Shown one piece after another: positions 1 through 42,159 of a DNA stretch of 42,159 nucleotides (the stretch's first letter is position 1; each line of letters begins with the position of its first letter). A program made the translations under genes and the position numbers. Source of the stretch: a virus. The stretch spans positions 1 to 42,159 of IMG/VR virus record IMGVR_UViG_3300027896_000086; one strand, given 5' to 3'. The notes under the pieces are model-generated. The model was not told the DNA's origin. It ran no database searches and saw only the letters and a program-made list of their open reading frames with translations.

Positions 1-299
1 CCGCAGGGGCCGCCGCAGGGGCCGCACGGGCCGCCGCAGACGTCGCCGCATGGGACGCAGACGTCGCCGCATGGGCCGCCGCAGGGGCCGCCGCAGACGC
101 CGCAGGGGCCGCCGCAGGGGACGCAGACGCCGCCGCAGACGTCGCCGCATGGGCCGCAGACGCCGCCGCAGGGGCCGCAGGGGCCGCCGCAGACGTCGCC
201 GCAGGGGCCGCAGGGGCCGCCGCAGACGTCGCCGCTAGAAACAGAATGCGTCTTAAAATATTAAATTACGGCATGGATTTAGTCCGTCGCTCTAAATGA
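1..299 (+). CDS. C-terminal part of a GC-rich Ala-repeat protein cut by the window start
   Basis: Open from the left edge in the frame whose codons start at position 3, ending with TGA at 297-299. The first 235 bases encode Ala-rich repeats built from short units such as AADVAAW and AAGAA. They are followed by a unique basic tail ending DLVRRSK. The same repeat units occur at the right edge (41798-42159), so this is the distal part of that gene on a circular or permuted molecule. Direct joining of the two ends is out of frame: about 2 bases (mod 3) are missing, or some repeat is collapsed. Base composition is far more GC-rich than the neighbours. The 62-residue Arg-rich reading in another frame is a shadow of the repeat. 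Confidence 0.75.
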   Translation, partial: AGAAAGAARAAADVAAWDADVAAWAAAGAAADAAGAAAGDADAAADVAAWAADAAAGAAGAAADVAAGAAGAAADVAARNRMRLKILNYGMDLVRRSK

Positions 300-31756: not shown

Positions 31757-32143
31757 CTACTCCCCATCCCCTTCGTCTGAACCCACATCCAACACCCGGT
31801 TAAATCCCACACTCAACCGCTTCTTAATATCTTCCCTCTGCTGTACCGTTAAATTAAAATTAACCGAATTATCATCCCCACCACCTGACTTTATATATCC
31901 CTTTATCCTCATCAAACCTTCCCAAAATTTAAACCTGGCATTCCAGTCGGGAGTCGAAGTCTCGTCCCCGTCCTTATCATACCGACACGCCACCAACCCC
32001 TCTCGCGCCGTCTGAAATAAAACATCGTCGGTAATTCCAACTTTCTGTAACGCCAAATCACGAACCGACAATTCACGCGACAAATCTCGAACACCACTCG
32101 TCTCTACCGGCAACCGCGATCCTATCTGCTCTACGTCTCCCAT
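31757..32143 (-). CDS. Terminase small subunit (by position and length)
   Basis: 128 residues. Helical N-terminus (DLALQKVGITDDVLFQTARE) with a helix-turn-helix-like spacing, then PDWNARFKFWEGLMRIKGYI, a phrase common in small terminases of this type. The C-terminus is acidic. It is the first gene of the late block, just before the large terminase cluster. A perfect TTGACA lies 29-34 bases upstream of the start. Confidence 0.7.
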   Translation of the reverse strand: MGDVEQIGSRLPVETSGVRDLSRELSVRDLALQKVGITDDVLFQTAREGLVACRYDKDGDETSTPDWNARFKFWEGLMRIKGYIKSGGGDDNSVNFNLTVQQREDIKKRLSVGFNRVLDVGSDEGDGE

Positions 32144-32290: not shown

Positions 32291-32657
32291 GAATTACCGT
32301 GTGCGCTACTACGATAACCCCCCGACGGAACTCCGACGGAAAATCAAGTTTCAAAATTTTGGGAAAATTCAGATGCGACTATTGGAAATAAAATTAATAT
32401 ACGCGCCGTCCCCCATGCCTTGCGCGTTCCGGGCCGATCTGTATCAGCGACACAACACAGCGACATAGCCCCATGCCACGCTATGAGCTGGTGATATGAC
32501 GTATCGTCAACGAATACTATAAAACTTCCTATAATCTACATTATGGGTAAGTACACACGCATAGATGATACTTGCATATAATACAAGGGCATTAGTGGTT
32601 GATGCGCTCCATTTTAAGAGCGGTGCTACTAAGGAAATGGAGTGGAAAACAAGGCGT

Positions 32658-32913
32658 TGTCCATCATGTCTATCGTCCGTCCACTATGTTTTAGTCATCC
32701 TTCCCTTATATAGTCGTCCACCATGTCCACCATGTCCATCATCTTTTTTTTATATATAAGGAAAAAAGAGAGTATGTAGAGAGAGGAGAGGAAAAGAGAG
32801 AATATAGTATAGGCAAAACTGATGGACATAGTGGACATTGTGGACAAAATATTATATATCAATGACTTACAACAAAATTGATAATGGACATAATAATGGA
32901 CGGATGATGGACA
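32658..32913. other. Mirror-image TGTCCA/TGGACA repeat array, candidate replication origin
   Basis: Left block on the plus strand: TGTCCA at 32658, TGTCTA at 32667, CGTCCA at 32678 and 32715, TGTCCA at 32724 and 32733. Right block: TGGACA at 32823, 32832, 32841 and 32885, TGGACG at 32897, TGGACA at 32908. The inner three of each block are spaced exactly 9 bp and the blocks face each other across 84 bp of AT- and purine-rich DNA. Ordered 6-mer iterons around an easily melted spacer resemble origins read by a phage or plasmid initiator. A regulatory operator is the alternative. Confidence 0.6.
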
Positions 32914-32988: not shown

Positions 32989-33048
32989 GATAGTAGCATG
33001 ATATGATATTAAAAAATAGTTGATAAAAAGACTTAACAATCTACTATC
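32989..33048. promoter_or_regulatory. Inverted repeat overlapping the early promoter, candidate operator
   Basis: GATAGTAG at 32989-32996 and its exact reverse complement CTACTATC at 33041-33048 have start positions 52 bp apart. The right arm lies in the spacer of the candidate early promoter. Two separated arms could serve a looping or dimeric repressor. The small regulator at 37571 is a possible binder, but this is a guess. Confidence 0.4.
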
Positions 33049-33060
33049 ATATGCTATACT
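33033..33060 (+). promoter_or_regulatory. Candidate early promoter
   Basis: TTAACA (33033-33038), 16 bases, TATACT (33055-33060): five of six matches to each sigma-70 hexamer. It lies 49 bases upstream of the first plus-strand gene (33109), which has a strong Shine-Dalgarno. The surrounding DNA is AT-rich. Confidence 0.55.
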
Positions 33061-35252: not shown

Positions 35253-35447
35253 ATGACACAACCTAGATTTTTTATATGCACATTGACCACGCCAGACGCC
35301 GATATCTTGCGCCGTTCAGAAATTGTTAGACGGGGAGAGAGGACACATTTGGATATTTACCGTCGAGGGATAGAGGCGTTTGAGGCTGAGCCGGAAGCCA
35401 AGAAAACAGTAGACGGAAAAGCCAAGAAAATGATAGACGGGAAATAA
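35253..35447 (+). CDS. 64-residue early protein with repeated tail
   Basis: Strong site AAGGAGATAATTAT. The first 45 residues look like a small fold (FFICTLTTPDADILRR). The tail repeats KKTVDGKAKK and KKMIDGK. It is the last gene before the replication-control region at 35475-35672. Confidence 0.55.
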   Translation: MTQPRFFICTLTTPDADILRRSEIVRRGERTHLDIYRRGIEAFEAEPEAKKTVDGKAKKMIDGK

Positions 35448-35672: not shown

Positions 35673-37124
35673 ATGAGCGACCCCGAAATGCCAGACACAC
35701 CGCCAGACAGAACGCTAGGAAATGAGCAAGTCCTAGCCGACGCCGAACTTATCCGCAAGGAAGCAAACTTGGCAGAAGCCAAAATCATCAACACCGCAGA
35801 ACCTAAAAAATTACAGGATAAGCCCAACAAATATTTTACCCTTGCCATGAGTATAAACGGAGGCAAGGAGTGTAAGGAGTTTTTGTATTGCCTGGAAGAA
35901 GATAAATTTTATAACTATAAGAACGGATATTGGACGCCATTATATGATATTGAGTTTTTAGGCATACTCGAAAACCGTATGCCAAGACTTATCTCCATGA
36001 CGTTGCCAAGCAGAAAGCAGATCATAGAGAACTTTAAGACTATCGCCCGTCAGCACGTTGACAGGTTTAACTGGTGCGAAATGGTGAATTTAGAAAATGG
36101 GATGTTAAACCTGAGTTTGGGACAGCTAGAAGAACATGAGCCAATGTTTTTTTCCACTAACCGCCTTCCTTATAAATACGACGCAGGGGCTAAGTGCGAG
36201 TTGTGGCTTAAATCGTTGTCAGAGATATTCGAAGGCGACCAGATAAAAATAGATGTGCTACAGGAGTTTTTCGGGTATTGTTTGACGAAGGACACGAAAC
36301 AGCATAAGGCGTTGTTGCTACTTGGAGAAAGTCGGTCGGCAAAATCGACTTTATTATATGTATTGAGATATTTGATTGGAGATATAAATTGTTCATCCGT
36401 ACCATTGAAAGACATCCGTAATCCGCAACACACGCCCGACCTAGTGAATAAGCTCGTAAATTTTGATTATGACGTTTCCGCTAAAGCCACAGAATTTGAA
36501 GATGAATTTAAAAAGATAACCAGTGGCGAGCCGATAAGAGCCAACCAGAAATATATCGAATCTTTTTCGTTTAATCCCTACTGCAAGCTGGCTATGGCCG
36601 CGAATATATTTCCTAAGATAACCGACCATAGCTCCGCATTTTATAACAGGTTGATATTGATACCTTGCGACCGGGTGTTCAGCCCAGAAGAACAAAACCG
36701 GGATTTGCCGAAGCAGTTGTTAGGGGAATTGCCGGGGATATTAAATTGGGCTATGGCAGGATTAAAGCGGTTGACGAATAGGGGAAGGTTTGCGGAGCTA
36801 GAATTTATGCGTGAAGCGGTTGAAGAACTGGAAAACGAGAATAACCCAGTTAATTTATTTTTTGATGAATATGTTGTTGTAGAAAACGGAACATGGATAG
36901 AGAAAAGCGATTTGTTCGATAAGTATAAAATGTGGTGCGAGAGGACTAAAAATTTTACGTTAAGCAAAAACAGGTTTGCGTCATGTGTGTATAAAAAGTA
37001 TCATAAGCACACGCCAAAACAGATACGGTTAAGTTCTGGAAAACGGGCTTGGATTTGGAAGAATCTTAAATATATTGACGTTCCGCAGGGGCAGGGTGGG
37101 CAGGAGGTCGGATGGCAAGAGTAA
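35673..37124 (+). CDS. SF3 helicase of the P4/D5 replication-initiator type
   Basis: 483 residues. The D5_N-like region is at about 150-210 (WLKSLSEIFEGDQIKIDVLQ, EFFGYCLTKDT). The Walker A loop is GESRSAKST at 218-226, with Ala where the family has Gly. Walker B region NFDYDVSAKATEF; sensor 1 KLAMAANIFPKI (Asn311); candidate Arg finger NRLILIPC. No primase domain is visible at the N-terminus, so priming may come from the host. There is no clear Shine-Dalgarno at 35673; a four-codon ORF (35665-35676) overlaps the start by ATGA. Probably unwinds the origin at 32658-32913. Confidence 0.85.
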   Translation: MSDPEMPDTPPDRTLGNEQVLADAELIRKEANLAEAKIINTAEPKKLQDKPNKYFTLAMSINGGKECKEFLYCLEEDKFYNYKNGYWTPLYDIEFLGILENRMPRLISMTLPSRKQIIENFKTIARQHVDRFNWCEMVNLENGMLNLSLGQLEEHEPMFFSTNRLPYKYDAGAKCELWLKSLSEIFEGDQIKIDVLQEFFGYCLTKDTKQHKALLLLGESRSAKSTLLYVLRYLIGDINCSSVPLKDIRNPQHTPDLVNKLVNFDYDVSAKATEFEDEFKKITSGEPIRANQKYIESFSFNPYCKLAMAANIFPKITDHSSAFYNRLILIPCDRVFSPEEQNRDLPKQLLGELPGILNWAMAGLKRLTNRGRFAELEFMREAVEELENENNPVNLFFDEYVVVENGTWIEKSDLFDKYKMWCERTKNFTLSKNRFASCVYKKYHKHTPKQIRLSSGKRAWIWKNLKYIDVPQGQGGQEVGWQE

Positions 37125-37570: not shown

Positions 37571-37717
37571 ATGGGTAAATACACTAACGTAACAATCGCA
37601 CTTCTCGACGAAGAATTAGCAAAGCTCAATCAGGTAAAGAAAGCGGAGAAGGACATAACGCTCAAGGGGATTTTTGTTTTGGGATTGGATGCTATTTTAA
37701 AAAGGGTAAAAAAATGA
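37571..37717 (+). CDS. 48-residue ribbon-helix-helix-like regulator candidate
   Basis: ATG 37571 after AAAGGAGGCTGTCTC. MGKYTNVTIALLDEELAKL, then KDITLKGIFVLGLDAILK, fits the short strand plus two helices of Arc/CopG-type DNA-binding proteins. It is the first gene behind the consensus promoter. The first 15 bases of the gene nearly repeat at 32543. No homologue was checked; a coiled small protein is the alternative. Confidence 0.5.
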   Translation: MGKYTNVTIALLDEELAKLNQVKKAEKDITLKGIFVLGLDAILKRVKK

Positions 37718-37842
37718 CCACCATCCTTGTCCACTCACCACTACACAACTATCTTCAATACCTGTGTTTCTACGGGCGGATAACGACTGAACAGGCGATA
37801 TTGGTTTTGGAGTGTAAGAAGGCGTTGGCGGAGATGAACTAA
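37714..37842 (+). CDS. 42-residue ORF, function unknown
   Basis: The ATG overlaps the previous stop (ATGA). MTTILVHSPLHNYLQYLCFY, then a helix TEQAILVLECKKALAEM. The stop shares a base with the next ATG (TAATG at 37840-37844), so three genes are coupled in series. Confidence 0.5.
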   Translation: MTTILVHSPLHNYLQYLCFYGRITTEQAILVLECKKALAEMN

Positions 37843-38252
37843 TGCGTGACTTAAAAACCCAACAAGACGCGGGAATAATTCTGATGTGGTGCATTTTTCT
37901 TTCCATTTTGGTTGTGCTGTTGTTTGCGAAGCCGGTGAGGGCGGAGGACTACGAACCCGTCATGGTCTGTAATGCGATATTCCATGCTGAAGGGGGCGCG
38001 AAGGCACAGTATTTATATGGAATCCGCTCTGTTCACTATAAAGACCTGTTTGAAGCCCGTCATATCTGTTTAAACACCGTAAAACACGCGAAAAAGGACT
38101 ATCTAAGGGAAACGGGTGGCAAAATTGATTTTATCGCCTTCTTGGGGTCGCGCTACGCTCCTGTAGGGGCTAAAAACGACCCCAAACACCTCAATAATCA
38201 CTGGATTAAGAATGTGCGGTATTGGCTCAGAAAGGATGCTCATGTCAAATAA
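37842..38252 (+). CDS. Membrane-anchored or exported lysozyme/transglycosylase-like protein
   Basis: 136 residues. Hydrophobic IILMWCIFLSILVVLLFA with PVRA cleavage-like end (residues 12-35). The mature part VCNAIFHAEGGAKAQYLYGI, then FIAFLGSRYAPVGAKNDPKH and NNHWIKNVRYWL, follows a pattern I associate with small phage muralytic proteins: an AEGG Glu, then a Gly-Ser-Arg-Tyr and NDP block. The catalytic assignment is uncertain. Being early and exported, it is separate from the late lysis cassette, so an entry or exclusion role is possible. Confidence 0.5.
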   Translation: MRDLKTQQDAGIILMWCIFLSILVVLLFAKPVRAEDYEPVMVCNAIFHAEGGAKAQYLYGIRSVHYKDLFEARHICLNTVKHAKKDYLRETGGKIDFIAFLGSRYAPVGAKNDPKHLNNHWIKNVRYWLRKDAHVK

Positions 38253-41142: not shown

Positions 41143-41279
41143 TGCGGTGTGGCGTTCTGGCGAAAACGCCGCGTAAACCAGCGTTGGGTGTGAAATAGCA
41201 CTAATGGGTGTGAAATAGCACTAATGGCTCTGGAATAGGCGAAACTCAAGTAAGCAGAGTTCAAATCCTGCCACCGCAG
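41143..41279 (+). tRNA. tRNA-like element with tandem duplication, probably degenerate
   Basis: TGCGGTG (41143-41149) pairs perfectly with CACCGCA (41272-41278), as an acceptor stem, with G following. After it come TG and a Leu-type D-arm-like stretch (GCG, loop with GG, CGC). Near the 3' end TTCAAATC sits between GCAG-A-G and CCTGC, a T-arm with one bulged A. The middle holds a 20-nt tandem duplication (41186-41225), making the whole 137 nt. I cannot place a proper anticodon arm. It may be a broken tRNA, a tmRNA-like relic or another structured RNA. Confidence 0.4.
41186..41245 (+). repeat. Three tandem 20-nt units (two exact, one degenerate)
   Basis: Units 41186-41205 and 41206-41225 are identical (GGGTGTGAAATAGCACTAAT). 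A third, 41226-41245, matches at about 10 of the first 13 bases. They lie inside the tRNA-like element and explain its excess length. Confidence 0.8.
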
Positions 41280-41797: not shown

Positions 41798-42159
41798 ATG
41801 AAAATAACAAACGAATGGTTAAAGGAACACTCGGCTTGTGTTGAAGGTTTCCAATGGAGCCAGACACAGGAAAACCGCGAGCTAGAGCCGTTTATCAAGG
41901 CTTTAGTTGACGCGGATCACTGGTCTTGGGCGAACTGGGTCGTTGTGCGAGTAATGACGTATGACCAATATGTGTCATACGCTGTTTATGCCGCAGAACA
42001 AGTTATCGAAATTTATGAAAAGAAATATCCGATGGATAAAAGACCACGCAATGCGATTGACGCGGCTAAAAAGTGTATCGGATTAAAAGGGGCCGCACGG
42101 GCCGCCGCAGACGCCGCCGCACGGGCCGCAGACGCCGCCGCAGACGTCGCCGCATGGGC
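41798..42159 (+). CDS. Ala-repeat phage protein cut by the window end, N-terminal part (Imm5-like family candidate)
   Basis: ATG 41798 after GAGGGGAAG; ATG 41780 would add six residues. The first 90 residues are unique (MKITNEWLKEHSACVEGFQW, then DADHWSWANWVVVRVMTYDQ and KRPRNAIDAAKKCIGLKG). From about 42092 the codons become GC-rich Ala repeats (AARAAADAAARAADAAADVA) running off the window. The layout resembles a phage family with an ACxEGxxW start and an Ala-rich helical tail that is sometimes called putative immunity protein. It continues at positions 1-299. Function unknown. Confidence 0.6.
   Translation, partial: MKITNEWLKEHSACVEGFQWSQTQENRELEPFIKALVDADHWSWANWVVVRVMTYDQYVSYAVYAAEQVIEIYEKKYPMDKRPRNAIDAAKKCIGLKGAARAAADAAARAADAAADVAAW

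What the first reader, a model, noticed from the sequence alone, without database searches (positions are those of the whole stretch)
32658..32913. Mirror-image iteron array around a purine-rich spacer: candidate replication origin
Six TGTCCA-type hexamers on the left face six TGGACA-type hexamers on the right. The innermost three on each side are spaced exactly 9 bp (32715/32724/32733 and 32823/32832/32841), and the outer three at 9-12 bp. The 84-bp spacer is AT- and purine-rich and gene-free. The genome has a P4/D5-type helicase, whose relatives use iteron origins. The dyad arrangement with two tiers per side is not one I recognise.
Basis: partly seen in the sequence, partly recalled or inferred. 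Interest (0 to 1): 0.8.

Follow-up and report, generated by a model that had tools for sequence, protein, structure and literature searches.

The report
Phage origin with facing repeat arrays
This stretch is very probably where the phage starts copying its DNA: two sets of six short repeats face each other across an easily opened stretch, a layout already known from phage satellites and a dairy phage, and seen here beside the same type of helicase gene in many unrelated phages.

Summary
Six TGTCCA-type hexamers (32658-32738) face six TGGACA-type hexamers (32823-32913) across an 84-bp AT/purine-rich spacer: 8 exact copies in 256 bp against 0.09 expected; dyad score 8.6 against at most 4.9 in 184 randomised loci. 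It lies between terS and an early promoter, 2.8 kb from a D5-type helicase gene. Eight of nine relatives found through the helicase (39-56% identity) have a comparable array at the same place, but the hexamer differs (TACACGCC, CCACGC, TGTCCT, ATACGC, TACAGC, TGGATACAA): layout is kept, sequence is not. A blind scan finds such dyads just downstream of D5-helicase genes in many other phages (21 of 39 within 600 bp of the stop codon, 2.1 expected). Its top hits in the two known controls are the annotated Sfi21 origin and P4 crr; lambda and HK97 give nothing of note. Best reading: the replication origin, bound by the D5 helicase, of the layout published for SaPI/PICI satellites, here in an autonomous tailed phage. 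New member of a known kind; the survey contradicts a published statement that the layout is unique to PICIs. Binding and replication are inferred, not shown.

The parts
32658..32683 (+). outer left tier: TGTCCA, TGTCTA, CGTCCA (spacing 9, 11)
32701..32712 (+). TTCCCTTATATA element between the left tiers; near-identical in G001 and L125, inverted in L129
32715..32738 (+). inner left tier: three hexamers at exactly 9 bp
32739..32822 (.). 84-bp AT- and purine-rich spacer, proposed melting region; among the less stable stretches of the genome but not the least stable
32823..32846 (-). inner right tier: three TGGACA at exactly 9 bp
32885..32913 (-). outer right tier: TGGACA, TGGACG, TGGACA (spacing 12, 11)
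33033..33060 (+). early promoter TTAACA-16-TATACT; promoter and 5' leader conserved in G001, comparable promoters in L090, L125, L129
35673..37124 (+). D5-type helicase (DUF5906, D5_N, Pox_D5), 483 aa, no primase domain recognised; proposed initiator that binds the hexamers through its C-terminal domain
31757..32143 (-). terminase small subunit-like gene left of the array (rival binder); named by its place next to terL and similarity to the same-place gene in relatives
35253..35447 (+). small ORF just upstream of the helicase, resembling ribbon-helix-helix proteins by eye; no family match (rival binder)
37571..37717 (+).

Best explanation
The array is the phage's DNA replication origin. The C-terminal domain of the D5-type helicase (35673-37124) binds the hexamers. 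Six sites on each side, in opposite orientations, load two helicase hexamers facing each other. They melt the AT/purine-rich spacer, encircle the exposed strands and start two forks. Shown here: the array, its rarity, its constant place in relatives, its co-occurrence with D5 helicases, and its match to characterised origins. Inferred: which protein binds, how many helicases load, the melting and the direction.
For: 1) Array far beyond chance. 2) Comparable arrays at the same place, between terS and the early genes, in nine of ten clade members: window, G001 (L005 1752-1924), L090 5269-5447, L124 7301-7515, L125 6468-6690, L126 6494-6690, L127 8161-8430, L128 3503-3757, L129 7190-7375. 3) The helicase is the only window gene with a homologue in all ten. 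4) Terminase relatives in which no helicase was found have no dyad: 12 loci, of which 7 (about four distinct) reach 1.6 kb or more upstream of terL and so test the place. 5) Of 39 helicase clusters with a dyad, 21 have it within 600 bp downstream of the helicase stop, 2.1 expected, maximum 10 in 5000 placements. 6) The top blind hit in Sfi21 lies inside its annotated 302-bp origin just after a D5-like primase gene, and in P4 in crr; lambda gives none and HK97 1.9. 7) The helicase profile matches the SaPI5 primase-helicase 7ola at 3.8e-27, also by fold. SaPI Rep binds iterons with its C-terminal domain, apparently as two hexamers, and the related Cch2 binds its iterons through that domain in vitro (PMC7581432).
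Against: No binding or replication data exist for this phage. Here the array is 2.8 kb upstream of the helicase gene rather than directly downstream. Across families, helicase similarity does not predict hexamer similarity (Mantel r = 0.05, p = 0.17), so co-evolution of protein and motif is not shown. A TerS homologue is also found in five relatives. L130-L132 show no array, their upstream regions being cut short. Three clade arrays (L125, L128, L129) were recognised by eye, not by the scanner. Six isolate phages (9NA, Isfahan, Henu15, 13VV501A, LincolnB, UFV02) gave no scanner hit within 5 kb of their helicase.
Confidence: 0.86

Rival explanations
1. A packaging site: the hexamers are a cosB/pac-like array bound by the terminase small subunit, whose gene lies about 500 bp to the left.
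For: Position next to terS in the whole clade; TerS homologues at 30-37% in five relatives.
Against: Terminase relatives without a detected helicase have no array. L090 has a terL not hit by the window's but has the array. In other families the dyad lies next to the helicase gene. Mirror symmetry around a spacer is not the cosB layout (established knowledge of lambda).
Confidence: 0.05
2. An operator: a small ribbon-helix-helix protein (35253-35447 or 37571-37717) binds the hexamers to control the early promoter or the divergent late genes, or to partition the genome.
For: Ribbon-helix-helix proteins bind short tandem sites (general knowledge). Small RHH-like ORFs occur upstream of the helicase in several clade members. 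The array is next to the early promoter.
Against: None was seen near the helicase of L124, L125 or L126, which have arrays. In other families dyads lie after the helicase gene. An operator needs no 60-100 bp melting-type spacer.
Confidence: 0.05
3. A replication origin whose hexamers are bound by another phage or host initiator, the D5 helicase being loaded afterwards. (The origin is shared with the best explanation; only the binder differs.)
For: The helicase gene is 2.8 kb away; motif and helicase divergence are not measurably coupled.
Against: The helicase is the only gene common to the clade. D5 relatives bind iterons themselves (PMC7581432). Sfi21 and P4 have the layout with their own D5-like proteins.
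Confidence: 0.1

Closest known systems
PICI/SaPI replication origins (Gram-positive and Gram-negative PICIs; SaPI Rep / PriRep)
   Same: [quoted passage not shown] served by a D5-family initiator helicase; iteron sequence differs between elements (PMC6092414; PMC7581432).
   Different: PICI origins lie directly 3' of rep; here the array is 2.8 kb upstream, between terS and the early promoter, in a full tailed-phage genome and not a satellite.
Streptococcus thermophilus phage Sfi21 origin (302-bp non-coding region)
   Same: Facing tiers AGTTACT/AGTTACT and TGTAACT/AGTAACT around about 70 bp of AT/purine-rich DNA, next to a D5-like primase gene.
   Different: The repeat also occurs in the wrong orientation on both sides; located directly downstream of the primase gene.
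Phage P4 crr and ori with type I repeats, bound by alpha protein
   Same: 8-bp repeats, some at 9-10 bp steps, facing each other across about 35 bp in crr; D5/P4-type helicase.
   Different: P4 splits function between ori and crr, crr is a duplicated 120-bp unit, and alpha carries a primase domain.
SCCmec Cch2 origin (AAGTG iterons)
   Same: D5-family helicase binding short repeats through its C-terminal domain.
   Different: Only three direct iterons; deleting the inverted repeats there did not affect binding.

Membership tests
[quoted passage not shown]
PICI/SaPI-type (D5-helicase) origin | element encodes a D5-family initiator helicase | tested here: met
PICI/SaPI-type (D5-helicase) origin | origin directly 3' of the initiator gene | tested here: not met
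   Array midpoint is 2850 bp upstream of the helicase open frame. So it shares the layout of this kind but is not a PICI origin in the strict sense.
PICI/SaPI-type (D5-helicase) origin | initiator binds the iterons through its C-terminal domain and supports plasmid replication | not testable with these tools
   needs gel shift and plasmid maintenance assays
PICI (the element itself) | small satellite lacking most virion genes and needing a helper | tested here: not met
   42-kb record with a terminase large subunit (phrog_2) and a long leftward block of late genes in synteny with G001
lambda/plasmid-type iteron origin | tandem direct iterons of about 17-22 bp with a non-helicase initiator | tested here: not met
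   6-bp units in mirror arrangement; lambda, with four annotated direct iterons, gives no dyad
cosB/pac packaging site | array travels with the terminase genes | tested here: not met
   terminase relatives without a detected helicase lack it; other families carry the dyad by the helicase gene

The most novel reading that the evidence does not exclude
Facing iteron dyads are the general origin design of D5-family initiator helicases across tailed phages, not a PICI hallmark. The recognition hexamer turns over quickly, even between phages with half-identical helicases, while the place, the 9-10 bp step, the two-sided layout and parts of the spacer (TTCCCTTATATA, CTACAATG) are kept.
Probability: 0.6. 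Interest if true: 0.6.

Novelty: new member of a known kind. Interest (0 to 1): 0.45.

Why it matters
The published account calls this origin layout unique to PICIs (PMC6092414). The survey places it beside D5-helicase genes in dozens of phage lineages and in the Sfi21 origin. That weakens its use as a mark of PICI ancestry, gives a sequence-only way to locate origins in uncultured phages, and yields natural sets of helicases with matched hexamers for working out how this helicase family recognises DNA.

Tried and rejected
DNA-level search of phages with the array region: no match. First helicase scan of viral contigs with the window protein alone: none. One degenerate pattern was wasted through a missing codon. 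Coupling of helicase and hexamer similarity: not significant. GC skew as independent evidence: set aside, confounded by gene direction. Spacer as the least stable DNA of the genome: not so; other sites melt more easily, including the stretch just right of the inner tier. Rfam: no RNA family in the region. The ORF 32565-32759 that overlaps the left tiers has no support and is taken as spurious. A SaPI sequence was not fetched as a yardstick; papers, Sfi21 and P4 were used instead. The 2007 SaPI replicon paper is not held.

Full report
Observation. The array is present as described. Six hexamers on the left and six in opposite orientation on the right, four of the twelve with one mismatch, flank an 84-bp spacer that is 30% GC and holds the most purine-rich 60 bp of the genome. 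Inner spacings are exactly 9 bp on both sides. Eight exact copies in 256 bp compare with 0.09 expected. A blind scanner that looks for two facing tiers of any hexamer with 8-12 bp steps scores the site 8.6. The best of 184 order-3 Markov control loci scores 4.9, as does the best of 100 shuffles of the window, and the best of 1500 shuffles of the local region scores 5.2.

Setting. The window is a whole 42,159-bp virus record whose two ends lie in the same GC-rich repeat, so the genome is probably circular or circularly permuted and nearly complete. The array lies between a leftward terS/terL block and a rightward early block. An early promoter (TTAACA-16-TATACT, 33033-33060) starts 120 bp to its right, and its leader is conserved in the relative G001. 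The cumulative GC skew minimum falls in the same kilobase, as expected for either an origin or a transcription divergence point. The early block encodes a D5-type helicase without recognised primase domain, RecT-like and exonuclease proteins and an SSB-like protein. No other initiator was recognised among the early proteins scanned.

Close relatives. Relatives were found by terminase and by helicase. The window helicase was aligned with nine others of 33-56% identity. Eight of the nine relatives have an array at the same place: G001 (TACACGCC/GGCGTGTA), L090 (CCACGC/GCGTGG), L124 and L125 (TGTCCN), L126 (ATACGC), L127 (TACAGC), L128 (TGTCCT/AGGACA) and L129 (TGGATACAA). The hexamer differs, but the left inner tier of units at 9-10 bp is kept, as are an AT-rich spacer and, in several, two spacer elements: TTCCCTTATATA left of the inner tier and CTACAATG at its right end. 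Symmetry is not perfect: in L125 the outer right copies point the other way, G001 has a mixed right side, and L129 has a weak right side. The ninth relative, L130 (with L131 and L132), is cut too close to the helicase on the relevant side and shows no array. L125, L128 and L129 were recognised by eye, because copies with mismatches fall below the scanner's criteria.

What the array travels with. The helicase is the only window gene with a homologue in all ten genomes. Twelve loci that share the terminase (54-79% identity) but in which no helicase was found lack a dyad. Only seven of them, about four distinct, extend 1.6 kb or more upstream of terL, so this control is modest. L090, whose terL was not hit by the window's, has an array.

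Wider survey. 170 loci with helicases fall into 77 clusters at 70% identity. Thirty-nine clusters have a dyad scoring at least 4.5. In 21 of them it lies within 600 bp downstream of the helicase stop codon, against 2.1 expected and at most 10 in 5000 random placements. Several show two tiers per side, for example L139 (TGGTCA), L140 (GGTCAG) and L133 (GTCCGG). The median gap between inner tiers for dyads near the helicase is 68 bp. Not every D5 phage shows one: of eight annotated isolates tested, six gave no hit and two only weak ones.

Known controls. In phage Sfi21 the scanner's best hit in 15.7 kb falls inside the annotated 302-bp origin, directly after a D5-like primase gene. In P4 its best hit is crr, the cis-required region for replication. 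Both score low (2.6 and 3.1) because their repeats also occur the other way round, so there the rank is informative and the score is not. Lambda gives nothing and HK97 1.9.

Mechanism. The helicase profile matches the SaPI5 primase-helicase (7ola, E = 3.8e-27), and the predicted fold (mean pLDDT 71.5) matches D5-family helicases including 7ola. [quoted passage not shown] SCCmec Cch2 binds iterons through its isolated C-terminal domain (PMC7581432). PICI origins always have two iteron sets flanking an AT-rich region (PMC6092414). The best model is therefore that the phage helicase binds six sites on each side, forms two facing hexamers, melts the spacer and starts two forks. Six sites per side fits one hexamer per side, but relatives have other numbers, so this count may be coincidence.

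Rivals. A TerS-bound packaging site is disfavoured by its absence from terminase-only relatives and by dyads beside the helicase gene elsewhere. An operator for a small RHH-like protein (35253-35447 or 37571-37717) cannot be excluded for this phage, but it does not explain the family-wide pattern. Coupling between helicase and hexamer divergence was tested and not found, so direct recognition by the helicase rests on analogy.

Novelty. The feature is a new member of a known kind: an origin of the layout known from PICIs and Sfi21, placed here at the terS/early-promoter junction. What is less expected is the breadth. The 2018 statement that the layout occurs in no other known bacterial replicon is contradicted by Sfi21 and by the survey. 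The literature searches covered open-access papers only, so others may already have noted this.

Noticed in passing
window 1-225 and 42090-42159; L005 1-230: Both ends of the record lie in the same GCC/GCA-rich repeat of an Ala-rich gene; the relative G001 also ends in an Ala-rich repeat gene (AGCAGC type). Assemblies seem to break there, so the records are probably circular or permuted.
   Followed up: partly
L013 6192-8645 and L014 1635-4088: The terL match is split by about 790 bp near query residue 475, as if by an intron or inserted element in the terminase gene.
   Followed up: no
window 41185-41238: 2.7 tandem copies of a 20-bp unit TGGGTGTGAAATAGCACTAA between early genes.
   Followed up: no
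window 32351-32371 and L005 2169-2189: TCAAAATTTTGGGAAAATTCA is conserved upstream of terS in window and G001 (19 of 21); possible late promoter or packaging element.
   Followed up: no
L090 4719-4795: Tandem TATACACATAA-type repeats upstream of terS, separate from the origin-like array.
   Followed up: no
window 37842-38252: A probably membrane-anchored small protein has homologues near the helicase in five relatives (30-44%); function unknown.
   Followed up: no
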